From Dyella nitratireducens (GTDB taxonomy: Bacteria; Pseudomonadota; Gammaproteobacteria; Xanthomonadales; Rhodanobacteraceae), in contig NZ_BMJA01000003.1 in assembly GCF_014642835.1 (NCBI RefSeq), positions 201,682 to 265,681 of the forward strand: a DNA stretch of 64,000 nucleotides, given 5' to 3'. A program made the translations under genes and the position numbers. Numbering within the stretch: the stretch's first letter is position 1; every line of letters starts with the position of its first letter. Shown piece after piece: positions 1-11,449 of the stretch. The notes under the pieces were generated by a model that worked only from the letters and a program-made list of their open reading frames with translations, was not told the DNA's origin and did not search any database.

Positions 1-3000
1 GGCTCTGAAGGCAGCGGGTGTCAAATCAATGATATCCATCGAGTCCGGTCTTAATGGATGTATCGGCCGGCCGTTACCGTCACGTGCGAACGGCCCTCTG
101 TCATTCACCGTTACGCATACGGTCACTTGCTTTCCACCAGGCTGGGTATACGTCACCGCAACCATCGTTCCAAGCGGAACCTTATCACCTGTCATGGCTG
201 CCGCCATGACAGTTCCATCAAAAAGTCCCCCGCTAGCGGTCTTATAGCCATTTAAGCTGTAGTAGGTCGCTTGTCCGGTATAGGTGGTATCAAGGCCCCA
301 AAAATCGATAAGGGAGACAGGGTTGCCGTCTGCATAGATATACGTGTTGATCCCACCCGCCAATCCAGCGGGATCACTCTCAAGATACCGCCCCACCCAA
401 TCGAAGTAATCCCGATACCCGTTGTTCCATAGCGACAATTCCGCATCGAAATACTGCCCAGGAAATCCGATGTTCAGAGGCACCACATTGTTGGTGCCCA
501 CCTCTCGCGTAAACGGAAGATTAAATACGCGCCAAATGACTGTCTGGTTCGCGTCGGTCATCGCCTCAGGGCGCCCCACCTGGTCCAGATGGATGTCTTG
601 CACCTGCCCGCCATGGATGCGGCCGATCAGACGGCCATTGAGCCACAGGTAGTCCACCCACATGCCGTTATCGTTTTCAGCGATCAGATGGTTGCTTTCA
701 TCCGGCGCAAAATACGTCGTGGCGCTGCCAACCGTCTTCATCAACCGCTGCCCTTGTGGGTCGATGTAATACGTATTGCCGAACGCCGTGGTCATGCGGT
801 TGAAGGGATCGAACTGCCATCGGCTGATCCCGTTGGCAGCGCTGCTGTTACCCAGTGCATCGTAAGCGAAAGTGGTTTGGCTGGCCTTGATCATCCGGTT
901 GCTGCCACTTTCGTAGAAGATATTCATGCTGTTGCCGTTGACCGTCTGCGCGATGCGGTTGCCATCGGCGTCGTATTGATAGGTCTCGTTCTCAGCACTG
1001 CCTGTTTCCGACACCAGGCGTGACTGTTCGTCATAGGCAAAATTCTGGGTCAAGATGGGCGAGATAAAATCCTGCTTCTTGCTGATGCGATCGGCGTTGT
1101 CGTAGTAAACGCCGTAAGTCAGCACCGCAGGCACGTTGGCACCGGTGAACCGGCCATCGGTGTCGTAAAACAACGTCGTGGTCAGGCCATTGCTGCCCAC
1201 CCAGCTCGCCATCGCCTTGTCTTGGGGCTGATAGGTGATCTGGCTGGCTTCGGTCTTCCCTGTGCCTGCAACATTCAAACTGACGGAAGACACCACGCCA
1301 TTGGTGTAGTTGTAGAGCGCTTGATTCCCATCCGGATACACCAGCGCCGTGACGTCCCCTGTCGCGTTGTAAGCGTAGCTCAACGAGTAGCTCACACCTC
1401 CGACAAAGAAGGAGCGGCCGGTGACCCAGCCCTCTGGGGTATAGCTGTAACCCACGTGGCCACTGGCATCGGCAGCGTTGCACAGGCGACCAAGCCCATT
1501 AGCGCAACTGTCGTAGGTGAAGGTTTGGGACTGCCCGCCTGCACTGATGCTGGTGACGCGGCCAATGGCATCGTAGGCATACATGGTCTGCACACCGTTC
1601 GCGCGCGTCATGCTGGTGCGACGGCCATTGCCATCGTAGCTATAGCTTGTCATGCCGGTGTCGGGACTGGTCTGCTGCCAAAGCTGCCCCAAGCCGTCAT
1701 AGACGTAGCCGGTGACAAGACCACGCGGATCGGTGACACGCGTGAGTTGATCCCCTGCGTCATGGAGGTAGCTAGTGGTGGCGCTCGCCTGAGCCGTACT
1801 GCCGATCGACGAACTGGCACCGCCGCTCTCCGTGGTCTGGGTGACGCGATTCAATGCATCGTATTGATGGCTGGTCACATGACCGGCTGCATTGGTAACG
1901 GACAGCACATTGCCGTTGCCGTCGTAAGCGTAGGTCAGCGATTGGCCGTGCTGACCCAGACGTTGATACACCCTGCCCAGCCCGTCGTAATTGACCGTGT
2001 CGATCAGGGTGGCCGTACCGCCACGCGCGATCGCATGTTTAATGACATCACCGTTCACGTCATAGAGGAAGCCTTCGGAGGAGGCGCCATCCTTGTCATT
2101 GTGGTTGATAGACGTCACCTGCATGACCTGGTTTCGATTCCAGGTGGTGACTTGGCCGTCTGGACCGGATTCGACGGCCAACAAACCGAAGCCATCGTAG
2201 CCATATGACCAGGTGGCGCTTCCGCCATTGGGATGCGTCGTTTTGGTCGACACTCGTCCACGCGCATCGTAGGTGTAATTCACCGTGTCGCCGTTAGGGC
2301 CGGTAATGCTGCCGGGTTGGCCCAACCCGTTATAGCCACCATAGGAAATGGTCTGGCCCAGGCCATTGGTCATCGAAGTGAGATTGCCCAGGCCATCGTA
2401 GCGATAAGTATCGGTGTCGCTGCCATTGGGCGACGGCTTGGTCATCGTCATGGTTTGTACCAAGCCGTTGCCATACAACGCGTATTGATAGCTGGTGGTC
2501 AGCGTCTGCCCTGCGATGCCATTCGCGGCAAGATTGGTTACGCTGATCGAAGCGATGCGATTCTGGGCGTTGTACGCATACGCGGTCTTGCGGACACCTT
2601 CCACCGTCACACTCAGCAACCGATTCAACGTGGCATTGGGATCCCACACATAGTCAGTCTTGCGCGCCAGCGACGTGCCGGCCGCTTCGGTTTCGGTCTG
2701 GAGCTGGCCGTTGGCGGCGTAATTGTAGGTGTGAACGTTGCCGTTGTTGTCGACCGTCTGAGAGAGGTTGCCGTTGCCATCGTAGATTCGGGTGTTGGCG
2801 GTGGGGCCGCACGTGCTGGTGGCGCCGTCGCTGATGGAGCTCAGCAACCCGTTCACGCCGGCATAGGTGTTGGTGGTGACGTGCCCCAGCGGGTTGGTCA
2901 CCGTGGCTACCAGATTGCCCGAACCATCTTTGCTGTAGGCGATCGTATTTTTGCCACTGCCATCCGCGTAATACGTGCTGGTAACCCATCCCCAATAGGG

Positions 3001-4152
3001 ACCGAAAATAGGGTTGCCGTTGTTGACGCTCAGAACCGTCGTGTCGTAGGTCGTGTAGGCATACGGCGTGCCGTTATAGTCCACCTCGCCCAAGATGCCA
3101 CCCGACGTTCCCTTGAAGGAAATCGTGGTAGCAGGGCTGCCGGGGAAACTGATCGAACTGACGACGTCGTTTAGCGTGTAACTGCCTGGAGATTCGTTGC
3201 CCACGTAGGTATAGGCATTGTTAGCCGGATCGGTGACGGTAACGGTGGGCGCGCCGCCGCTTGCCGAGGGCACGTAGGTAAAGCGAATCGACTGGCCATT
3301 GGTATGCGTCACCGATGCCAACTGCCCGCCGCTATAGGTGAAGGTCCAACCGATACCGGACGCATCCACGATGGACTGGATGACCCCCGACGACGAATAC
3401 ACCTGGGTGCTGCCGTCGTCATCCCGCAAGGTGTAATTGCCGCTGGACGGATCGCGTGTCAGCACCTGCACGCCATTGCCCATGATCGGGTAGGACGTGT
3501 CGTTCGCGCCACCGCTGAAGACCACCGCCGAACCATCCGGGCGATGCAAGGTGCGCTTGCTGCAATTGGTGACTGCGCTGCCTTGCGCCAAGCCATCGTA
3601 ATAGCAGGTGGTATCCAGCATGTAATCGAAGTTGCTGGTCCATGGCGCCACGTTGCCGCTGTTGTGAGACAACACGAACTTCAAACCCATCTCGCCGGGC
3701 AGTTCGAATAGCGGAAATGTCTCGACCTTGCTGCCACTGCTGAGCAGCACGGGATCTGCTTTTTTATCCGCGCCACCATTCGGATTCTTTTTGCAATCGG
3801 TGCTGGCAGGCGCGCTTTGAGACGAGTACGGACGCTTGGGGGAGAAGGCAAGTCCCTTCGCGATCGGAGGAAGAGAGCCGAACGGATTCTGCGGAGGGTT
3901 ATAGCTGCTAAGGCCGAGCGCATCCGCTGCAGCAAAGAGGTCCGGCGCCCGATTCCCCGTTACCTGGATCGAAGGCCAGTTAAAAGTGTCGCGCTGAGGT
4001 GCTGCCGCCTGCCCGGCTGCCGAGTGCGGTAGCGAAACCATGGCAGCGACGGCCACGAAAAGAAGCTCTCGACGACGTGTAAACCATGGCGCTTTCGGAA
4101 CCGGCGAATTGACTTCAGCCGCAGCACGTTCGATGCGTGCCACACGCATCAT
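1..4152 (-). CDS. RHS/YD-repeat protein with RlpA-like C-terminal tip (3' end outside window)
   Basis: One uninterrupted frame of 1384 codons runs from ATG at 4152 to the window edge without a stop. The N-terminus has a basic stretch then a hydrophobic segment (about residues 28-44), suggesting export. Residues about 170-1190 are a long series of YD/RHS repeats (forms such as YDGLGNLTS, YDGNGNVLS, YDALNRVTQ). The conserved RHS core follows, with PGQYFDAE, GRYLESDPAGL and NTYIYADGNP, ending in the junction DFWGLD near residue 1283. After the junction, residues about 1288-1384 carry GQATYYS, TASGGLFDG, VPLGTMVAV, VNDRGPF and DIIDLTPAAF. In order and spacing these match RlpA-like double-psi beta-barrel (DPBB) domains. 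RHS proteins deliver variable C-terminal tips, so the DPBB part is probably the effector module; that role is inferred. A second in-frame ATG lies at 4149. Any cognate immunity gene would lie beyond position 1. Confidence 0.9.
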   Translation of the reverse strand, partial: MMRVARIERAAAEVNSPVPKAPWFTRRRELLFVAVAAMVSLPHSAAGQAAAPQRDTFNWPSIQVTGNRAPDLFAAADALGLSSYNPPQNPFGSLPPIAKGLAFSPKRPYSSQSAPASTDCKKNPNGGADKKADPVLLSSGSKVETFPLFELPGEMGLKFVLSHNSGNVAPWTSNFDYMLDTTCYYDGLAQGSAVTNCSKRTLHRPDGSAVVFSGGANDTSYPIMGNGVQVLTRDPSSGNYTLRDDDGSTQVYSSSGVIQSIVDASGIGWTFTYSGGQLASVTHTNGQSIRFTYVPSASGGAPTVTVTDPANNAYTYVGNESPGSYTLNDVVSSISFPGSPATTISFKGTSGGILGEVDYNGTPYAYTTYDTTVLSVNNGNPIFGPYWGWVTSTYYADGSGKNTIAYSKDGSGNLVATVTNPLGHVTTNTYAGVNGLLSSISDGATSTCGPTANTRIYDGNGNLSQTVDNNGNVHTYNYAANGQLQTETEAAGTSLARKTDYVWDPNATLNRLLSVTVEGVRKTAYAYNAQNRIASISVTNLAANGIAGQTLTTSYQYALYGNGLVQTMTMTKPSPNGSDTDTYRYDGLGNLTSMTNGLGQTISYGGYNGLGQPGSITGPNGDTVNYTYDARGRVSTKTTHPNGGSATWSYGYDGFGLLAVESGPDGQVTTWNRNQVMQVTSINHNDKDGASSEGFLYDVNGDVIKHAIARGGTATLIDTVNYDGLGRVYQRLGQHGQSLTYAYDGNGNVLSVTNAAGHVTSHQYDALNRVTQTTESGGASSSIGSTAQASATTSYLHDAGDQLTRVTDPRGLVTGYVYDGLGQLWQQTSPDTGMTSYSYDGNGRRTSMTRANGVQTMYAYDAIGRVTSISAGGQSQTFTYDSCANGLGRLCNAADASGHVGYSYTPEGWVTGRSFFVGGVSYSLSYAYNATGDVTALVYPDGNQALYNYTNGVVSSVSLNVAGTGKTEASQITYQPQDKAMASWVGSNGLTTTLFYDTDGRFTGANVPAVLTYGVYYDNADRISKKQDFISPILTQNFAYDEQSRLVSETGSAENETYQYDADGNRIAQTVNGNSMNIFYESGSNRMIKASQTTFAYDALGNSSAANGISRWQFDPFNRMTTAFGNTYYIDPQGQRLMKTVGSATTYFAPDESNHLIAENDNGMWVDYLWLNGRLIGRIHGGQVQDIHLDQVGRPEAMTDANQTVIWRVFNLPFTREVGTNNVVPLNIGFPGQYFDAELSLWNNGYRDYFDWVGRYLESDPAGLAGGINTYIYADGNPVSLIDFWGLDTTYTGQATYYSLNGYKTASGGLFDGTVMAAAMTGDKVPLGTMVAVTYTQPGGKQVTVCVTVNDRGPFARDGNGRPIHPLRPDSMDIIDLTPAAFRA

Positions 4153-4311
4153 TCCCTGACTTTCCCCCGACACACACTTCCCCTTTTATCCGTTGCGTCA
4201 AACCTGCGTAGGTGCGGCTAGTCTGCGGAAAGGTTGTGTTTTGGGAAGTTCAAGTAAGAGCCAAGAGGATGGCCTTTCGAGACAAGTATCGGGTGCTACC
4301 CCCACGGCCGC

Positions 4312-4439: not shown

Positions 4440-4976
4440 CTATCGCTTCGCTTCCTCATCAGCGACTTTCAAAAACCCATCCCTGATACGCGTCAACAAA
4501 CGTTGAAACAACACAAGCTCGTCCGGTGACACATCGGCAAGCGCCTTTTGCAAACGGCTCGCGTTGAGATCCATCGCGCTCGTAAAGATCTCCCTGCCCT
4601 TCTTCGTAAGCGTGGCGAGCATGCGGCGGCGGTCTTGTTGATCGCCGACCGATTGCACCAAGCCTTCCTGTTCCAGCGCAAACATCATGGCCGACACGGT
4701 GGCGCGTTTGACCTGCAGCGCCGCAATGATTTCCTGATGCGGTACCGCGCGGTCGCCCGCGCCCCACAGCAGTGCCAACGTCTGGAACCGCGCAGGCGAA
4801 CCGGCGGTGCCCTCCAGCCAACTGTTCAAGACATTCGTGATGTGCTGGGTACCGGACTTCAGCGTGAACACCGTTTCCAGCCGTTGCGCAGCCGACTCCG
4901 GAAAACGCCGCAGATAGGCCTCGCGCAGGTATGGGGTCGGGAAGCTCGACGGGTCGTTGGAATCTTGATCTTTCAA
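4440..4976 (-). CDS. MarR-family transcriptional regulator
   Basis: A 178-residue winged-helix regulator. The central region (HQEIIAALQVKRATVSAMMFALEQEGLVQ followed by the wing DQQDRRRMLATLTKKG, described here in two parts) is the MarR DNA-binding domain, with a C-terminal dimerisation helix. The start is set at TTG 4976 because GGAGGT lies six bases upstream. A GTG at 4991 in the same frame would place this Shine-Dalgarno inside the gene, so the longer form is less likely. It is divergent from the emrAB-OMF operon, the usual arrangement for a MarR repressor that is released by small phenolic or drug-like ligands. Its ligand cannot be read from sequence. Confidence 0.88.
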   Translation of the reverse strand: MKDQDSNDPSSFPTPYLREAYLRRFPESAAQRLETVFTLKSGTQHITNVLNSWLEGTAGSPARFQTLALLWGAGDRAVPHQEIIAALQVKRATVSAMMFALEQEGLVQSVGDQQDRRRMLATLTKKGREIFTSAMDLNASRLQKALADVSPDELVLFQRLLTRIRDGFLKVADEEAKR

Positions 4977-5046
4977 GGGGTTACCTCCCACCGGAACGAT
5001 CCGGCAGCGGACTGTATGGTAAGCGACAAATGCCTTCGCGGACGAT

Positions 5047-5109
5047 TAAGTCAGTAAAAACAGTAGCATAAATAATACTTCGCCTACAAATTGTATGTCG
5101 TTTGACTTA
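5047..5109. promoter_or_regulatory. Candidate MarR operator region between divergent marR and emrA
   Basis: The AT-rich divergent intergenic region carries a 7-bp inverted pair TAAGTCA (5047-5053) and TGACTTA (5103-5109). Between them is the perfect 11-bp palindrome TACAA-A-TTGTA (5085-5095). MarR proteins bind short palindromes overlapping the promoters they repress, so these are plausible operators; binding is inference. Confidence 0.45.
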
Positions 5110-5198
5110 TTTACTAAGCAAGCGTATTGTTCGCTGCCATACAAATAGCGGCTGACTTGCGATCGGCGCACGCCAGCCCCCGCTTGGAGGAGTTGGTC

Positions 5199-6275
5199 AT
5201 GAGCAACACCGAAACACAGGAAGGCGCAAAGCCCCGCGCTCTACCCCGCAAAACCCGGATCGCCGCGGGTGTGATCGCCGCTGTGCTGGTGGTCGTCAGC
5301 GGCGTGGCCTACGCTGTCATGTCGGGCCGCGAGGTTTCCACCGACGATGCGTACACCGACGGCCGCGCCATCACGATTGCCCCGCATGTGGCCGGGTACG
5401 TTGCCGAACTCAACGTCACCGACAATGAGTTCGTCCACCAGGGCCAGGTGCTGGTCCGCATTCAATGCACGGACTATCTCGCCACGCGTGATCACGCGCA
5501 GGGCGCGCTGGAATCGGCCGAAGGGCAACTGGCAGCCGCGCAAACGGACCTGGCACTCGCAAAGATCACTTACCCCGAACGCTTGAGCGCCGCGCAAGCC
5601 ACGCTCGCCACGGAGCGCGCCAATCTGTTCAAGGCGCAATCCGAGTTCCTGCGCCAGCACGACATTCCCAAAGAAGCCACCACGTCGCATGACATCGACT
5701 TCGCCACCGCCAATCGCAACGCGGCCGAAGGCGATGTAGCACAAGCACAGGCGCAAGCGCGCATCGCCCAGCCGGTCAATCTCAACATTGACGACGCGCA
5801 GGCACATGTCGAGCAACTGCAGGGCGAAGTGAAGCTTGCCCAAGGCGATCTGGATCAAGCCAAGCTCAATGTCGGCTATTGCGATGTCGTGGCACCGCAA
5901 GATGGTTGGGTTACCAAGCGCGGTGTCGAAAAAGGTGACTACATCCAGGTCGGCCAACAACTGTTCGCCATTGTCAGCCCGGAAGTCTGGGTCACGGCCA
6001 ACTTCAAAGAAACGCAGCTGGCGCACATGCGCCCCGGGCAGCATGTGTCGATGACGATTGATGCGTATCCGAACCTCAAGCTGAAAGGCCACGTCGATAG
6101 CATCCAGGAAGGTTCGGGCGGCAAGTTCACCGCATTTCCCGCGGAAAACGCCACCGGCAATTTCGTGAAGATCGTGCAGCGCGTGCCGGTGAAGATCGTG
6201 ATCGACTCCGGCCTGAATCCGAAGCAGCCGCTGCCGCTCAATCTCTCGGTCGAACCGACGGTAGAACTGCAATGA
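5199..6275 (+). CDS. emrA: EmrA/HlyD-family periplasmic adaptor of a multidrug exporter
   Basis: A 358-residue membrane-fusion protein. It has one N-terminal transmembrane segment (about residues 20-42), a biotinyl-lipoyl-like half with STDDAYTDG and AGYVAELNVTDNEFVHQGQ, and a long alpha-helical hairpin rich in Ala/Gln (about 95-215). The second lipoyl half and a beta-barrel with VWVTANFKETQLAHMRPGQ follow; the latter is typical of EmrA-type adaptors. The start at ATG 5199 is supported by GGAGGAG upstream; an in-frame extension to 5127 lacks such a site. Its stop overlaps the next start as ATGA, so it is translationally coupled to the permease. Predicted role is linking the inner-membrane permease to the outer-membrane factor. 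Confidence 0.9.
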   Translation: MSNTETQEGAKPRALPRKTRIAAGVIAAVLVVVSGVAYAVMSGREVSTDDAYTDGRAITIAPHVAGYVAELNVTDNEFVHQGQVLVRIQCTDYLATRDHAQGALESAEGQLAAAQTDLALAKITYPERLSAAQATLATERANLFKAQSEFLRQHDIPKEATTSHDIDFATANRNAAEGDVAQAQAQARIAQPVNLNIDDAQAHVEQLQGEVKLAQGDLDQAKLNVGYCDVVAPQDGWVTKRGVEKGDYIQVGQQLFAIVSPEVWVTANFKETQLAHMRPGQHVSMTIDAYPNLKLKGHVDSIQEGSGGKFTAFPAENATGNFVKIVQRVPVKIVIDSGLNPKQPLPLNLSVEPTVELQ

Positions 6276-7852
6276 GCACCGCCTCCGACATCCATGATGT
6301 TGCATGGAAGCCGCGCGGCAATCCGTGGCTGATTGCGGTGGTGGTGACGCTGGCCGCATTCATGGAGATTCTCGACACCACCATCGTCAACGTCGCGCTG
6401 CCGCACATCGCCGGCAGCCTTTCGAGCAGCCCTGACGATGCCACCTGGACGCTTACCTCGTATCTCGTTGCCAACGGGATTGTGCTGACCATTTCCGGCT
6501 GGCTCGGTGCGGTGATCGGCAGGAAGCGCTACTTCCTGATTTGCATCGCCATGTTTACGGTGTGCTCGTTGCTGTGCGGATTGGCGCAGAGCCTGCCGCA
6601 ACTGATCGTGTTCCGTTTGCTGCAAGGTTTCTTCGGCGGCGGCTTGCAGCCCAACCAGCAAGCGATCGTGGTGGATTCTTTCGAGCCGCAGAAACGCGGT
6701 GCGGCGTTCGCCATCACGGCGATTGCCACCGTGGTGGCACCGGTACTCGGCCCGGTGCTCGGCGGCTTCATCACTGATAACGCGTCGTGGCGCTGGATCT
6801 TTTTCATCAATATTCCGGTCGGCATTTTCGCTTGCCTCGCCGTGGCAGCGCTGGTGGACGATCCGCCGTGGGCCGTCAAACAGAAGCGTTCCGTGGATTA
6901 CATCGGCCTGGGGCTGATCACGCTTGGCCTGGGCTGCATGCAAGTGATGATGGATCGCGGTGAGGACGAAGGCTGGTTTCAATCCCCCTTCATCGTGCAC
7001 ATGACGATACTGGCCGTTCTCGGCATTGCCGGTGCCGTGCTGTGGTTGTTGATCGCCAAGAAGCCCGTGGTGAATCTACGGGTCTTCAAGGACCGCAATT
7101 TTGCCGTCAGTTGCGGCTTGATCATGGGCATGAGCTTCATCCTTTACGGCGCAGCCGTGCTCATTCCGCAATTTGCGCAGACGACGATCGGTTACACCGC
7201 TACGCTGGCCGGGCTCGTGCTGGCACCTGGCGGTGTCGTGATCATCTTGCTGATTCCGCCGGTTGGACGGCTGATGAAAGTGGTGCAACTGCGTTATCTG
7301 ATTGCCGTGGGTTTTGCAATCATGATGTTGGCATTCTGGTATTCCAACAGGTTGGTACCGTCCATCGATTTTTCGACGCTCACCACGATGCGCGGCCTGC
7401 AGACCGCGGGACTGGGCTTCCTGTTCGTACCGATCAGCATCATGGCGTACCACAGCCTGCCCAAGTCGCTTGGTGCGGATGCATCGTCGCTGTTCGTCAT
7501 GTTCCGCAATGTCTCCGGATCGGTCGGCATCTCGGTCTCGACCGCCATTGTCTCCGAGCGTACGCAGGCCAGCCAGGCGCATCTGTCCACATGGCTGACT
7601 CCCTTCAATCAATCGTTCAATGAACTGGTCGCAAAAAACGAAGCGGCACTGCGATCGTTGGGACGCGCTGCAAGCACGTTGCACGAAACAGCTATCGGTT
7701 ATGCGTTTCAGACCTTGAAACAGCAGGCCGCCATCCTGGCCTACGGCGATACCTTCATGTACTTCGCCGTACTTGCCGCGGCCATGATCCCGCTGGCGAT
7801 GTTTTTGTCGCCGGTCAAAGACGGCGGTCATGCATCCGCACCCATGCACTAA
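6272..7852 (+). CDS. emrB: EmrB-type MFS drug:H+ antiporter (DHA2, 14 TM)
   Basis: A 526-residue major facilitator with about 14 hydrophobic segments. The DHA2 signature LDTTIVNVALP is near residue 31, motif A is GRKRY, and motif C is seen in GPVLGGFITDNASWRWIFFINIP, where the last part is the usual WRWIFxIN. It exports hydrophobic toxicants using the proton gradient. It overlaps emrA by four bases and is followed 28 bases later by an outer-membrane factor gene, so the whole tripartite pump is encoded together. The exact substrate is unknown. Confidence 0.9.
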   Translation: MSTASDIHDVAWKPRGNPWLIAVVVTLAAFMEILDTTIVNVALPHIAGSLSSSPDDATWTLTSYLVANGIVLTISGWLGAVIGRKRYFLICIAMFTVCSLLCGLAQSLPQLIVFRLLQGFFGGGLQPNQQAIVVDSFEPQKRGAAFAITAIATVVAPVLGPVLGGFITDNASWRWIFFINIPVGIFACLAVAALVDDPPWAVKQKRSVDYIGLGLITLGLGCMQVMMDRGEDEGWFQSPFIVHMTILAVLGIAGAVLWLLIAKKPVVNLRVFKDRNFAVSCGLIMGMSFILYGAAVLIPQFAQTTIGYTATLAGLVLAPGGVVIILLIPPVGRLMKVVQLRYLIAVGFAIMMLAFWYSNRLVPSIDFSTLTTMRGLQTAGLGFLFVPISIMAYHSLPKSLGADASSLFVMFRNVSGSVGISVSTAIVSERTQASQAHLSTWLTPFNQSFNELVAKNEAALRSLGRAASTLHETAIGYAFQTLKQQAAILAYGDTFMYFAVLAAAMIPLAMFLSPVKDGGHASAPMH

Positions 7853-7880
7853 AGCATTTGGATTGTCGAGGACACACGCC

Positions 7881-9443
7881 ATGAACATCATCAAGCTGCA
7901 CATTGCGCTCGCTGCCGTACTACTGGCCGGATGCACCGTAGGTCCGAACTTCACGCGCCCCGATGCGAAACTGCCGACCGCATGGTGCGCGGCAGACTGC
8001 CAGGCAAAACCAACCGTTCCCAGCCACACGGCGCCCGCGCCGATCAACACGGCCTGGTGGACTTCGTTCGATGATCCGGAACTGGTCAAGCTGGAAGAGC
8101 GCGTCGCCGATGCCAACCTGGATCTCAAGGTGGCATCGCTGCGGCTTGCCGAAAGCCGCGCGGAACGTTCGATCACCGCTGCCGACCAATATCCCACCGT
8201 CGAAGGCAATGCGAGTGCCGTGCGTCAGCGTGCCAGCGCCAATGGCGTGATGGGCATTGCCGGTGCGCTGACGCAATCGACCAATGCAACGACGGCCGCC
8301 AACGGAACGGGCGCGGGTGTCGTGGCCCTTCCCTCCGGTAGCAAAGGCTCGTCGGGCCCGGCGCCTTTCAATCTTTTCCAGGCGGGCTTCGATGCGTCGT
8401 GGGAGCTCGATCTGTGGGGCAAGGTGCGCCGTGAAGTGGAAGCCGCCGATGCATCGGTGGATGCACAAGCCGATGCACGCCGTGATCTTCTGATGTCCAC
8501 CATGGCCGAAGTCGCACGCGACTACATTCAATTGCGCGGCACACAAACTGACTACGCCATCACGCTCGACAATCTCAACGCCGCCAAGGATGCCGAACGC
8601 GTCACGCGCGAGCGCATGGCGCATGGCCTCGCCACCGAACTGGATGTGACGGAAGCCGCTTCGCAAGTGTCGGCGGAAAACGCGATCCTGCCCCAGCTCG
8701 CACAGCAGGAGGACGAAACCATCAATCGCTTGAGCTTCCTGCTTGGCCAGGCTCCCGGTGCCTTGCGCGCCGAGCTCGAAGAAAGCAGGCCCGTTCCGCC
8801 TACGCCGCCGGTCGTGCCCGTAGGCATTCCTTCAGACTTGGCGCGCCGCCGTCCAGACATCCGCGAAGCCGAGGCAAACCTGCATCAGGCCACGGCAGAC
8901 ATCGGCGTTGCGAAGGCGGATTTCTATCCGAGCATCACGTTATCGGCCAGCGGCAGCCTGCAAGCCTTGCAGTTCAGCCAGCTCGGTAACTGGGGCTCGC
9001 GCCAGTTTTCCATTGGCCCCTCGATCAACCTGCCCATCTTTGAAGGCGGCCGGCTGAAGGCGACGCTCAATCTGCGCAAGGAACAACAACAAGAAGCGGC
9101 CATCAACTACCAACGCGTCGTACTTTCTGCATGGCATGACATCGACAATGCGCTGACCGAGTATTCCTCACAGCAGCAGCGTCACGATCAACTGCAAGCA
9201 GAAGTGCAGGACAACCAGCGTGCACTACATTTGGCGCAAGCCCAATACACCGCCGGCACGGGCTCGTTCCTGCAGGTGCTCGATGCGGAACGCCGCCTGC
9301 TCGCCGCACAGCAGGACCTTACCGACAACACCACGCAGATCTCCACCACTCTGGTTTCGCTGTACAAGGCACTGGGCGGCGGCTGGGAGTCGACTTATCC
9401 CGAAATCGGGTCCGTAGCGGTCACGCAAACACCACGTTCCTAG
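7881..9443 (+). CDS. NodT-family outer-membrane efflux lipoprotein (OprM/TolC-like)
   Basis: A 520-residue outer-membrane factor. The start is placed at ATG 7881, giving a lipoprotein signal with lipobox LLAGC at Cys18. An upstream in-frame ATG at 7830 would bury the signal peptide. It carries CTVGPNFTRP after the lipid cysteine and SWELDLWGKVRREVEAADAS, characteristic of the NodT family. Two related OEP repeats with long coiled helices are visible, the second beginning near the RRPDIREAEANL motif. It forms the outer-membrane channel for EmrAB. Two further OMFs of other exporters lie at 51250 and 56596. Confidence 0.9.
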   Translation: MNIIKLHIALAAVLLAGCTVGPNFTRPDAKLPTAWCAADCQAKPTVPSHTAPAPINTAWWTSFDDPELVKLEERVADANLDLKVASLRLAESRAERSITAADQYPTVEGNASAVRQRASANGVMGIAGALTQSTNATTAANGTGAGVVALPSGSKGSSGPAPFNLFQAGFDASWELDLWGKVRREVEAADASVDAQADARRDLLMSTMAEVARDYIQLRGTQTDYAITLDNLNAAKDAERVTRERMAHGLATELDVTEAASQVSAENAILPQLAQQEDETINRLSFLLGQAPGALRAELEESRPVPPTPPVVPVGIPSDLARRRPDIREAEANLHQATADIGVAKADFYPSITLSASGSLQALQFSQLGNWGSRQFSIGPSINLPIFEGGRLKATLNLRKEQQQEAAINYQRVVLSAWHDIDNALTEYSSQQQRHDQLQAEVQDNQRALHLAQAQYTAGTGSFLQVLDAERRLLAAQQDLTDNTTQISTTLVSLYKALGGGWESTYPEIGSVAVTQTPRS

Positions 9444-9466: not shown

Positions 9467-9991
9467 GTGAACAAATATGTTGACCGTGCGGACAAAAGCG
9501 AGGCGTCAACAGGACAAGAAACGTTCGACATGACGGACGTCGACGCGCTCTACAAAATGGCGGAGGTCAGCCGCATCTTGAAGAGCGCAACCTCCACCAT
9601 CGAGAAACTCGCACACCTGGCCTCGGGAACCAACGATCTGACACTGATGCACTGCCTCGTGCTGGTTCATCTATCGAGGACGGTCAGCTGCAAACAGTTG
9701 GATCTGAAATATGCCACCCGCATCGCTTCGCCGTATCTGACGAAGTTGATCGATGAACTCACCATTCGGGGTTTTGTCCGTCGGCATCGGTCGTCAGGGG
9801 ATCGTAGGCAGATCATTCTGGTGCTTACCGCGCCAGGACGGGAAACTGCGCTGCGTCTGCTGGCGTCCTTGCATGAGCTCACCCATCAGACACAACGCGA
9901 TGCTATTGAGCAGCTTGGTTTCTCGCTGAAGCGTTTTGTCATCACGACCGGGAACGAAGGGCTATCTGATCGGGATGGCAAAGAGAACTGA
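9467..9991 (+). CDS. MarR-like winged-helix regulator
   Basis: A 174-residue protein with a MarR-type winged helix: SCKQLDLKYATRIASPYLTKL as the DNA-reading part and RHRSSGDRRQIILVLTAPGR as the wing. GTG at 9467 is preceded by AGGAG nine bases upstream; ATG at 9530 is an alternative start. It lies 23 bases after the OMF gene on the same strand, so it is probably co-transcribed with the exporter. The exporter locus would then have two MarR-like regulators, one divergent and one at the operon end. Sequence similarity to the first regulator is low by eye. Confidence 0.75.
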   Translation: MNKYVDRADKSEASTGQETFDMTDVDALYKMAEVSRILKSATSTIEKLAHLASGTNDLTLMHCLVLVHLSRTVSCKQLDLKYATRIASPYLTKLIDELTIRGFVRRHRSSGDRRQIILVLTAPGRETALRLLASLHELTHQTQRDAIEQLGFSLKRFVITTGNEGLSDRDGKEN

Positions 9992-10020
9992 GATCAACCC
10001 TCGCTGGACACCTGATCACA

Positions 10021-10152
10021 CCTCACCGTCATTCCGGCGAACGCCGGAATCCAGTACGAACATGCTGTGCGGAGCACTCAACATAAAAGGTGTCGTGTCC
10101 TTCGGACGCATATTTAAACTGGATTCCGGCGTTCGCCGGAATGACGGTGAGG
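10021..10152. repeat. Long-form REP/MITE-like palindrome, orientation A
   Basis: Terminal arms CCTCACCGTCATTCCGGCG and its exact reverse complement flank an inner, non-symmetric block containing TGTGCGGAGCACTCA and GTGTCCTTCGGACGC. The same 125-130 bp unit recurs at 46544-46672 in this orientation and at 20235 and 23861 in the opposite one. It lies between the convergent MarR gene and the CoA-transferase gene. Confidence 0.85.
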
Positions 10153-10222
10153 CAATGATTGGCATTGCCGCAAGGTTGACCTACCCACTTGCAAACAAGG
10201 TAAGAGATGTTTTTTAGCCGCG

Positions 10223-11449
10223 CTAAACCACATGCTCCTTCGCGCGCGGAATAGCACCACCCTCACACAAATCATCAATCTCAGTCGCACTGAATCCAAG
10301 CTGCCGAAGAATCTCCTCGTTGTGCTCACCAATCTTCGGCGCACGCTTGGCCGAAACCTTGGCGACACCATGCACCTGCAGCGGACTGCTGATCGTGGAC
10401 GTCAGCTTGCCACCGGCACCTTCGAGCGGAACGATGATGTCATTGGCGCGCAGCTGCGGATCATCGATCACCTCTTGCGGAGAGCGCACGGCACCGAACG
10501 TCACATGGACGCCACTGAAAACCTTGTACCAGTGCTCCATCGGCTGCGACTCGAAAACGCCGTCCAGGATGGCGGTGAGCTGCGGCATATTCGCCATCAA
10601 CTTGGCGGGATCGGCAAACCTCGGATCGGTCAGAAGATCCGGCCGGCCGATCGCCTTGGCCACGGCCTCCAGCTTGTCGGGTGTGACGATGAGAACGAAC
10701 CAGGTGTCATCGGCGGCGCGATAGACATTCATCGCCGCATTCGCAGGATTCTTGCGATCGTGCAAACCAAAAAACTTCGCATCGCACAGTGCCGCCTGGA
10801 TCGAAACGCTTGCCGACCAGACACCTTCCGCAAGCAGCGAGGTCGTGACACGAGTGCCCTCACCCGTGCGTTCGCGGCGATACAGGGCCGTTACAATCGC
10901 GGCATAAAGCCCGACTGCGGTCGCATTGTCACCGCTGCCTGCCACCGGCCAGGTGGGTGGCGCGCCGGCATCGCGCGTCATCGACAGCAATCCGCTGCGC
11001 GCCCAGTACGAGGTGATGTCAAAGCCCGGCAGATCTGCATCAGGCCCCTTCTCGCCGAAACCCGTAAGGTCGGCGTAGATCAGGCGCGGGTTCCATCCCA
11101 CCACGTCTTCATATTCAAGTTTGAGTCGCGCGCGTGCCGGGTGCGGTGTATTCACGATCAGAACGTCGGCCCATTTGACGAGCTTCTCGATCACCTGGCG
11201 AGCGCCCGGCGATTTCAGGTCAAGCGCCATGCCCCGCTTGTTTCGGTTGGCCAGGTGCCAGGGGTAGGCATCCGCGGCAACCGGTTGCGGTGGCATGTTG
11301 TTCGCATGTCGCCACAGGTCGCCATTCGGCGGCTCCACCTTGATCACGTCGGCGCCGAAGTCGGACAGGATCACCGCGGCGCTGGGGCCTGCGATGAAGC
11401 TCGCCATATCCACCACTTTGAGCCCGGAAAAAATGTTGTCGCTTGCCAT
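10223..11449 (-). CDS. CaiB/BaiF family (class III) CoA-transferase
   Basis: A 408-residue protein close to the usual length of class III CoA-transferases. Visible are the N-terminal FSGLKVVDMASFIAGP and SDFGADVIKVEPPNGD (the Rossmann-like CoA region with the VIKVE motif), NRNKRGMALDLKS, and a segment DLTGFGEKGPDADLPGFD typical of the family. It moves CoA between carboxylic acids. The start ATG 11449 is preceded by GAAGGGA; a longer frame to 11566 lacks family similarity. It is the last gene of a minus-strand operon with two crotonases, an acyl-CoA dehydrogenase and a 3-hydroxyacyl-CoA dehydrogenase. That resembles carnitine-type or other CoA-thioester breakdown, but the substrate is not identified. 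Confidence 0.88.
   Translation of the reverse strand: MASDNIFSGLKVVDMASFIAGPSAAVILSDFGADVIKVEPPNGDLWRHANNMPPQPVAADAYPWHLANRNKRGMALDLKSPGARQVIEKLVKWADVLIVNTPHPARARLKLEYEDVVGWNPRLIYADLTGFGEKGPDADLPGFDITSYWARSGLLSMTRDAGAPPTWPVAGSGDNATAVGLYAAIVTALYRRERTGEGTRVTTSLLAEGVWSASVSIQAALCDAKFFGLHDRKNPANAAMNVYRAADDTWFVLIVTPDKLEAVAKAIGRPDLLTDPRFADPAKLMANMPQLTAILDGVFESQPMEHWYKVFSGVHVTFGAVRSPQEVIDDPQLRANDIIVPLEGAGGKLTSTISSPLQVHGVAKVSAKRAPKIGEHNEEILRQLGFSATEIDDLCEGGAIPRAKEHVV

What the first reader, a model, noticed from the sequence alone, without database searches (positions are those of the whole stretch)
1..306. RHS protein with an RlpA-like double-psi beta-barrel tip
After the RHS core junction (DFWGLD near residue 1283) the C-terminal part reads GQATYYS, TASGGLFDG, VPLGTM, VNDRGPF, DIIDLTPAAF. 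This is the order of conserved elements in RlpA-type DPBB domains, which include peptidoglycan lytic transglycosylases. I do not know of a well-described RHS effector with this tip. The TAAH histidine used in RlpA is not seen here (the stretch reads MAAAM), so it may have changed activity or bind glycan only. The window cuts the tip and any immunity gene.
Basis: partly seen in the sequence, partly recalled or inferred. Interest (0 to 1): 0.75.

Follow-up and report, generated by a model that had tools for sequence, protein, structure and literature searches.

The report
RHS toxin carrying RlpA-like wall-cutter tip
A large bacterial weapon-type protein of the RHS kind ends in a swappable domain shaped like a cell-wall-cutting enzyme and is followed at once by a small, probably exported protein that may protect the owner; we found no description of this domain as an RHS warhead.

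Summary
The minus-strand gene at window 1-4173 continues 56 bases left of the window. It encodes a 1409-residue RHS/YD-repeat protein whose last 115 residues are a complete double-psi beta-barrel (DPBB_1, 39.9 bits, cut-off 28.8; AlphaFold pLDDT 93 with homologues; nearest solved fold PA4485). It is a true variable tip: two congeners keep the core (82% and 61% identity) but have unrelated tips and unrelated next genes, with the same acyltransferase further downstream. Fifteen bases after the stop lies a 146-residue protein with a signal-peptide-like start: a candidate, unproven immunity gene. The published catalytic aspartate of RlpA (D168; Ser in inactive E. coli RlpA) is present as D1383, and the missing TAAH histidine is also missing from the organism's own RlpA. 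The tip shares an enlarged loop with a few DPBBs on viral contigs; all seven long-loop domains examined lack that histidine. No second RHS-DPBB fusion was found among the matches listed from sampled genomes. Best reading: a periplasm-acting RHS warhead that cleaves peptidoglycan glycan; activity, target and immunity are inferred. New variant of a known kind.

The parts
1..4173 (-). RHS/YD-repeat protein, 1409 aa in full; the gene continues to window -56 (L002:11626-15855:-); GTG start at 4173. Left of the window, 15 bases after its stop, lies the candidate immunity gene (146 aa, window -512 to -72, L002:11170-11610:-), which the coordinate limits of this list do not admit
   Evidence: Pfam RHS_repeat 1.1e-60; next gene: signal-peptide-like start, AGG ahead of ATG, no Pfam, NCBIfam, PADLOC, PHROG or PDB match
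4009..4173 (-). N-terminal signal-peptide-like segment (basic RRR, hydrophobic LLFVAVAAMVSLP, then SAAGQAAA), about residues 1-55; no lipobox cysteine seen; no PAAR
   Evidence: hydropathy maximum of the whole protein at residue 37; no PAAR in Pfam at E<=1; the signal-peptide reading is by eye
292..483 (-). RHS repeat-associated core domain (TIGR03696), residues 1231-1294, ending DFWGL
   Evidence: 64.2 bits against cut-off 32.5
1..291 (-). RlpA-like double-psi beta-barrel tip, residues 1295-1391 here; the domain runs to residue 1409 at window -56
25..27 (-). codon of D1383, equivalent of P. aeruginosa RlpA catalytic Asp168 (Ser in E. coli RlpA)
   Evidence: alignment; published role in PMC9712689 (passages)
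100..102 (-). codon of D1358 in VNDRGPF, equivalent of RlpA Asp157
   Evidence: the number follows from counting along L096; any role of Asp157 is recalled, not from a call
193..195 (-). codon of M1327, at the position of the RlpA TAAH histidine
28..90 (-). enlarged 21-residue loop between DRGP and the catalytic Asp (7 residues in usual RlpAs), shared in form with a few DPBBs of viral contigs

Best explanation
This is a polymorphic RHS toxin. The protein leaves the cytoplasm by an N-terminal signal peptide, its YD-repeat/RHS core acts as carrier shell, and the last ~115 residues are a variable warhead, probably released by cleavage after DFWGL. The warhead is an RlpA-like DPBB domain that most likely cleaves peptidoglycan glycan strands (lytic transglycosylase chemistry with D1383 as key acid) in the periplasm of a competing cell. 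The small, probably exported protein encoded 15 bases downstream most likely protects the producer in its own periplasm. Shown: domain make-up, completeness, fold by homology and model, retained Asp residues, replacement of tip and next gene between congeners. Inferred: export, cleavage, route between cells, substrate, enzymatic activity, immunity.
For: DPBB_1 over the curated cut-off. PDB sequence match to PA4485, 4avr, E 4e-5. A model of the 97 window-encoded tip residues with 46 viral DPBB homologues has pLDDT 93.2; Foldseek best hit 4avr (TM 0.68/0.70, E 2.8e-4), then the cyanophage A-1(L) baseplate protein 8kea (1.5e-3), with MltA 7esj weak at E 0.47. Asp168 and Asp157 equivalents are kept. 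Congener G066 keeps the core (75-91% identity per 100 residues over residues 100-1299, then 28%) but has an unrelated tip and next gene; so does G145, whose gene is interrupted by a stop. Downstream of all three lies the same acyltransferase (83-88% identical pairwise). GC3 falls from 0.715 (core) to 0.539 (tip) and 0.578 (next gene), with a like drop in G066. Both proteins have signal-peptide-like starts, which would put them in one compartment. A signal-peptide-bearing RhsD was listed in Xanthomonas campestris outer-membrane vesicles (passages of PMC2438364), one possible route out.
Against: No activity data. RlpA Glu120 and His131 are Gly and Met in the tip. RlpA is reported to need denuded glycan and its SPOR domain to present it (passages of PMC6895207); the tip has no SPOR or other wall-binding domain, and RlpA-family NCBIfam cut-offs are not reached. 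Relatives of the candidate immunity protein lie at 11 further places in 10 genomes; of 9 neighbourhoods read none has an RHS gene directly beside it, one has an RHS-like gene about 1.9 kb away, so the family is not tied to this tip. In G000 about 2.2 kb with further genes lie between the candidate immunity gene and the shared acyltransferase. No second RHS-DPBB was found, so conservation of the pair cannot be tested. The model rests on a homologue alignment; without one pLDDT was 43.7 (108 residues).
Confidence: 0.55

Rival explanations
1. The tip is a DPBB that binds or loosens glycan or another ligand (expansin- or adhesin-like) without cutting, acting as wall anchor or adhesin of a surface RHS protein.
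For: Two of the four RlpA positions compared are changed (G1316, M1327). Titles and abstract starts listed describe RlpA-family proteins with binding roles: plasminogen receptor MPL36 of Leptospira (PMC10399853), fibronectin binding by RlpA of Glaesserella parasuis (PMC11392263), a non-catalytic FtsK partner in E. coli (PMC6113214; that it is non-catalytic is from the passages of PMC9712689). NCBIfam's best match to the tip is MPL36, far below cut-off (33.0 of 430 bits). Foldseek also finds plant kiwellins at E 0.05-0.25.
Against: The published catalytic Asp168 equivalent is kept; the changed positions also vary among RlpAs and viral DPBBs. The tip sits in a swappable warhead position with a next gene that changes with it.
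Confidence: 0.25
2. The tip targets a non-bacterial wall or host process (fungal or plant), so the next gene need not be an immunity gene.
For: Fungal DPBB effectors that act on plants are in print (PMC11820871, title and abstract start; PMC7662947, title and abstract start). A weak 24-residue phmmer match to cerato-platanin, E 0.37. Relatives of the next gene are mostly not near RHS genes.
Against: Closest sequences are bacterial and viral RlpA-like domains; joint replacement of tip and next gene ahead of a shared downstream gene is typical of toxin-immunity pairs (general knowledge).
Confidence: 0.1
3. A decayed or accidental fusion: a DPBB fragment joined behind an RHS core, now without function.
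For: Only one example found; GC3 of the tip is low.
Against: The domain is complete by profile and in frame; both Asp residues are kept; the model of its window-encoded part is confident; a gene with a ribosome-site-like AGG follows after 15 bases.
Confidence: 0.1

Closest known systems
RHS/YD-repeat polymorphic toxins (Rhs core plus variable C-terminal tip plus immunity gene)
   Same: YD repeats, RHS core domain at the junction, tip and next gene replaced between congeners ahead of a shared downstream gene
   Different: Tip is an RlpA-like DPBB, which I could not find described as an RHS tip; signal-peptide-like N-terminus, no PAAR
RlpA septal lytic transglycosylase (TIGR00413 / PRK10672)
   Same: DPBB_1 domain, element order, Asp157 and Asp168 equivalents
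   Different: No SPOR domain, no lipoprotein signal seen, Glu120 and His131 equivalents changed, 14-residue longer loop; scores far below the family cut-offs
PA4485 of P. aeruginosa (PDB 4avr)
   Same: Best sequence and fold match, single DPBB domain
   Different: Stand-alone chain of 95 residues, keeps the histidine (AAH in the alignment); called hypothetical in the entry title
Phage tail-hub / baseplate DPBB domains (PDB 8kea, cyanophage A-1(L); Nostoc and Dolichospermum phage proteins annotated VgrG1)
   Same: An RlpA-like DPBB carried on a large delivery protein (8kea; the phage proteins matched L108, not the tip)
   Different: Phage tail machinery, not an RHS shell; whether those domains cut the wall was not checked
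Small DPBB proteins with long loop on viral contigs (L108, L112, L189, L190)
   Same: Long G.PI.PLRP-type loop, His replaced by Ser, catalytic Asp kept
   Different: L108 and L112 are stand-alone small proteins with a hydrophobic start; L189/L190 gene context not examined; 32-36% identity to the tip

Membership tests
RHS polymorphic toxin | YD/RHS repeats and RHS-associated core at the junction | tested here: met
   RHS_repeat 1.1e-60; Rhs_assc_core 64.2 bits against 32.5
RHS polymorphic toxin | C-terminal tip varies between close homologues while the core is kept | tested here: met
   G066 and G145 against G000: core 82% and 61%, G000 tip unrelated to either (best blastp E 5.8). 11 different tips printed from 19 genus loci scanned; of these only one pair, G145 and G147, is alike at E<=0.1 (61%)
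RHS polymorphic toxin | Cognate immunity gene directly downstream | tested here: inconclusive
   146-aa protein with signal-peptide-like start 15 bases downstream, a different gene in each congener; relatives elsewhere not directly beside an RHS gene in 9 of 9 neighbourhoods read, 2 further places not read; neutralisation not testable
RHS polymorphic toxin | Self-cleavage that frees the tip | not testable with these tools
   Junction DFWGL instead of DPxGL; other genus proteins also vary (DQQGL, DSLGL, DMLGL); the cleavage rule is recalled
T6SS Rhs effector | N-terminal PAAR or spike-binding domain | tested here: not met
   No PAAR at E<=1; the genome has two VipB/TssC matches over cut-off, so a T6SS is likely present
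DPBB_1 / RlpA-like domain | Profile match over the curated cut-off and DPBB fold | tested here: met
   39.9 bits against 28.8; model of the window-encoded part to 4avr TM 0.68/0.70
DPBB_1 / RlpA-like domain | Catalytic aspartate (D168 of P. aeruginosa RlpA) | tested here: met
   D1383; E. coli RlpA has Ser in this column
RlpA proper (TIGR00413) | Score over family cut-off, SPOR domain, lipoprotein signal | tested here: not met
   31.5 bits against 82.15; no SPOR in Pfam at E<=1; no lipobox seen in the N-terminus (by eye)
Lytic transglycosylase | Cleavage of MurNAc-GlcNAc bonds giving anhydroMurNAc ends | not testable with these tools
   needs an assay

The most novel reading that the evidence does not exclude
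The tip belongs to a separate, perhaps mainly virus-borne branch of DPBB wall enzymes in which the TAAH histidine is given up together with a long loop between DRGP and the catalytic Asp (7 of 7 long-loop domains, the tip included, have Ser or Met there, and each carries a histidine inside the loop, though the tip's is not in the aligned column). An RHS protein has taken such a wall-piercing domain as an interbacterial warhead, with a periplasmic antitoxin of a new family. This would be a new class of RHS warhead with a rearranged active site.
Probability: 0.25. Interest if true: 0.7.

Novelty: new variant of a known kind. Interest (0 to 1): 0.5.

Why it matters
If right, RHS proteins of the signal-peptide type can carry a cell-wall glycan cutter of the RlpA fold, so DPBB domains serve as swappable weapons as well as division enzymes and phage tail parts. 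The pair with a small periplasmic protein would be a compact test of which DPBB residues cut peptidoglycan, of interest because the usual His is missing here and in the organism's own RlpA.

Tried and rejected
Other RHS-DPBB fusions, looked for and not found: tip search in 147 family genomes (E<=1e-3, 14 matched), 398 order (E<=1e-5, 4 matched) and 369 class (E<=1e-4, 56 matched); core+tip search in 398 phylum genomes (E<=1e-8, 49 matched, at most 8 candidates scored per genome); long-loop profile in 299 phylum genomes (253 matched, at most 16 candidates scored per genome, match list cut). The own genome is among the matched ones each time; the samples overlap. Plasmids (12 records, 11 annotated RlpA family, 1 none; 76 records at E<=10, 60 listed) and phages (18 records, all listed): no RHS annotation among the listed rows; the weakest rows (MFS transporter, IclR regulator and the like) look like chance. 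Genome contigs and viral contigs gave no relative from the single tip sequence; genome contigs gave none for the next gene either, although relatives exist in the genome search set, so that scan misses some.

Candidates rejected after reading: plasmid hits H13, H45 and H49 (RHS core match running on, no DPBB in the tip); G536 with a 1420-residue open frame (a chance frame around an ordinary RlpA); six places where the match ran past the core (G1188, G954, G989, G1037, G946, G1001: no tip-like domain, best tblastn E 0.39; G1076, of the same kind, was not opened).

Single-sequence folding of the window fragment was uninformative (pLDDT 43.7); no fold search was run on it. The 71-aa frame at L002:10800-11015 matched nothing beyond copies of its own locus and one weak hit.

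Papers: Rhs+RlpA+toxin (3 listed, none on this subject; PMC2438364 opened for passages); polymorphic toxin + double-psi beta-barrel (0); RlpA+lytic transglycosylase+active site+double-psi (1, listing only); Rhs+effector+peptidoglycan+DPBB (0); RlpA+lytic transglycosylase+Pseudomonas aeruginosa+SPOR domain (21, 20 listed; three opened: passages of PMC9712689 and PMC6895207, and PMC6113214, which gave no passage); Rhs+peptidoglycan+immunity protein+lytic transglycosylase (12; only PMC11148199 looked into, passages, RlpA and DPBB occur 0 times); RlpA+immunity protein+effector (1, off topic by title); polymorphic toxin + RlpA (2, off topic by title, not opened). The library lacks most subscription papers, so this does not prove absence from print.

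Corrections of my own counts: two rows (L282, L290) were counted by the script as long-loop with His; on reading they have DLN instead of DLS and an ordinary 7-residue loop, so I count long-loop domains as 7 of 7 without His. Rows left out: one search was given 47 of the 80 loci; one search used 44 of those 47 (L134, L140 and L171 left out; one search shows all three with His and a short loop) plus L189, L190 and the window. The frame-shifted relative in L069 was left out of alignment A1.

Full report
What is there. The window begins inside the 3' end of a minus-strand gene. The whole genome is held, with the window at G000:C3:201682-265681, so the missing end was read from L002. The gene runs from window 4173 (GTG) to -56 and encodes 1409 residues. 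Pfam finds many RHS repeats and a DPBB_1 domain at residues 1299-1399 (34.6 bits on the whole protein, 39.9 on the tip alone, cut-off 28.8). NCBIfam places the RHS-associated core at 1231-1294, so the barrel begins directly behind it. With the truncated window alone the score is 28.4, just below the cut-off.

It is a tip, not a general extension. In 16 genomes of the genus the closest relative, G066, is 82% identical over residues 4-1296 and G145 61% over 61-1297 (with one stop inside); both matches end at the same junction. Per 100 residues, G000 and G066 agree at 49% in the first hundred, 75-91% from 100 to 1299 and 28% beyond. The G000 tip is unrelated to the other two by blastp (best E 5.8; between the other two 0.08), and so are the three next genes (best E 0.65). 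Further downstream all three have the same acyltransferase, 83-88% identical pairwise: next but one or nearly so in G066 and G145, but in G000 after about 2.2 kb with other genes. Upstream only about 116 bases before the start, plus two short repeat-like stretches, are shared by G000 and G066, and nothing by G145 at E<=1e-3, so the locus is conserved on one side only. GC at third positions falls from 0.715 in the core to 0.539 in the tip and 0.578 in the next gene, and in G066 from 0.685 to 0.541 and 0.490. Eleven tips were printed from the 19 genus loci scanned; only G145 and G147 have like tips (61%). Of the ten tips other than the DPBB, one has a Pfam match at E<=0.01 (Lnb_N). This is the pattern of a polymorphic toxin locus.

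The barrel. Aligned with 13 RlpA-type domains, the tip keeps the DRGPF Asp (D1358) and the IIDL Asp (D1383). In P. aeruginosa RlpA (L096) counting residues makes these 157 and 168. PMC9712689 (passages) names D168 as the catalytic Asp and says E. coli RlpA lacks activity because it has Ser there; the E. coli K-12 sequence indeed has Ser in this column. Glu120 and His131 are Gly and Met in the tip. The His is not a reliable sign of activity: the own-genome RlpA (L047) has Ser, and of 14 DPBB domains held from this bacterial family 13 lack it (11 Ser, 2 Asn; the exception L016 has His). Apart from L047 these loci are those that matched the tip, a selected set; I know of no assay of any of them.

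Structure. The model has pLDDT 93.2 and pTM 0.82; the fragment without homologues had 43.7. Foldseek gives PA4485 (4avr) first, E 2.8e-4, TM 0.68/0.70, rmsd 1.9; then the baseplate protein of cyanophage A-1(L) (8kea, 1.5e-3); kiwellins (0.05-0.25); MltA (0.47). By sequence 4avr is also the best PDB match, E 4e-5. The model follows its alignment, so it confirms rather than discovers the fold, and it lacks the last 18 residues.

A long-loop branch. Between DRGP and the catalytic Asp the tip has 21 residues where usual RlpAs have 7. Three domains from viral contigs have a similar loop (L108 FAMNQAGEPIKPLRPHPKRLF against FARDGNGRPIHPLRPDSMDII in the tip; also L112 and L189), and three more have loops of 24, 20 and 14 residues (L190, L113, L116). 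In the 47-row alignment all 7 long-loop rows, the tip included, lack the TAAH His, and 38 of 40 short-loop rows have it (Fisher p 6e-7). Rows are related and the scan favoured the conserved motifs, so this is not an independent test, and the invariance of the two Asp in 47 of 47 rows is partly built in. A wider count over 174 distinct domain strings that fit the script's pattern in all held loci gives 7 of 7 long-loop without His after correcting two mis-parsed rows, and 17 of 167 short-loop without (a 10-residue loop with Met, L279, is counted as short). Each long-loop domain has a His inside the loop, though in the tip it is not in the aligned column. L108 and L112 are small stand-alone proteins with a hydrophobic start. 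In 299 phylum genomes searched with the long-loop profile, 253 matched. Among the listed matches none spans more than 270 bases against 321 for the tip, and none but the tip lies in a frame over 600 residues; but some listed matches end before the loop, and the list is cut. That the branch is mainly viral is therefore only a suggestion: its members were first sought in viral contigs.

The neighbour. The next gene starts 15 bases after the RHS stop, with AGG ahead of its ATG, and encodes 146 residues with a hydrophobic start and an AHA-type end of a signal peptide (by eye), no Cys, and net charge -5 in the presumed mature part against +3 for the tip (opposite charge is only suggestive). It lies at window -512 to -72 (L002:11170-11610:-), outside the window. 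It has no family match. Relatives occur sporadically in the bacterial family: 8 of 197 genomes and 8 of 157, the own genome included in each; together 11 further places in 10 genomes, two of them weak. Of 9 neighbourhoods read, none has an RHS gene directly beside the relative; L070 has an RHS-like gene 1.9 kb away. So immunity rests on position, likely compartment and replacement together with the tip, and the family context does not confirm it.

How it most likely works. Export: the N-terminus looks like a signal peptide and there is no PAAR, although the genome has two VipB/TssC matches. How such an RHS protein crosses the outer membrane is not known to me; a signal-peptide RhsD was listed among vesicle proteins of X. 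campestris (PMC2438364, passages). Cleavage after DFWGL, shell function of the core and transfer to a neighbour are inferred from general knowledge of RHS proteins (recalled). Action on peptidoglycan glycan is inferred from the fold, the retained Asp pair and the RlpA relatives. Against it: RlpA is described as needing denuded glycan presented by its SPOR domain (PMC6895207, passages), which the tip lacks, and other RlpA-family proteins are listed in print with binding roles (titles).

Novelty. RHS toxins and RlpA domains are both well known; their union as core and tip was not found in the collections or papers searched here (searches named in Tried and rejected). I rate it a new variant of a known kind. 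The rarity is a sample result: the genome samples overlap, candidates per genome were capped, and the match list was cut.

Noticed in passing
L002:9503-9573 and L002:11043-11110 (left of window): Two copies of a palindromic REP-like element (TAGGCTGGGATGAAATCCCAGC), 26 nt fully complementary between copies, flank a second acyltransferase gene (9615-10754) between the candidate immunity gene and the acyltransferase shared with congeners.
   Followed up: partly
window 4440-9443: MarR-type regulator on the minus strand next to plus-strand genes that look like HlyD/EmrA, a DHA2-type MFS pump and an outer-membrane factor: a drug-efflux-type operon (names by eye).
   Followed up: no
L047 (own-genome RlpA) and L006-L015: RlpA-type domains of this bacterial family have Ser in place of the TAAH histidine.
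   Followed up: partly
L051:8443-8919:+ (G066 contig 63): Another RHS tip of the genus matches Lnb_N (PF13387, 23.0 bits against 22.2), a periplasmic domain by its name; possibly another envelope-directed warhead.
   Followed up: no
L050:1991-2386:- (G145) and L020:5128-5520:+ (G147): Two RHS proteins of different congeners, with cores about 61% and 40% identical to this one, share a tip of unknown family (61% identical).
   Followed up: no
hits H152, H154 (Nostoc phage YongM, Dolichospermum phage Dfl-JY23): Phage genes annotated valine-glycine repeat protein G1 carry an RlpA-like DPBB, an arrangement that recalls the solved baseplate protein 8kea; not compared directly.
   Followed up: no
L050:1988-6205 (G145 contig 16): The G145 homologue of this RHS gene is interrupted by a stop, leaving open frames of 1119 and 283 aa.
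   Followed up: no
L069:4207-10928 (G394 contig 11): A relative of the candidate immunity gene lies frame-shifted among small accessory genes that may be an immunity or defence island.
   Followed up: partly
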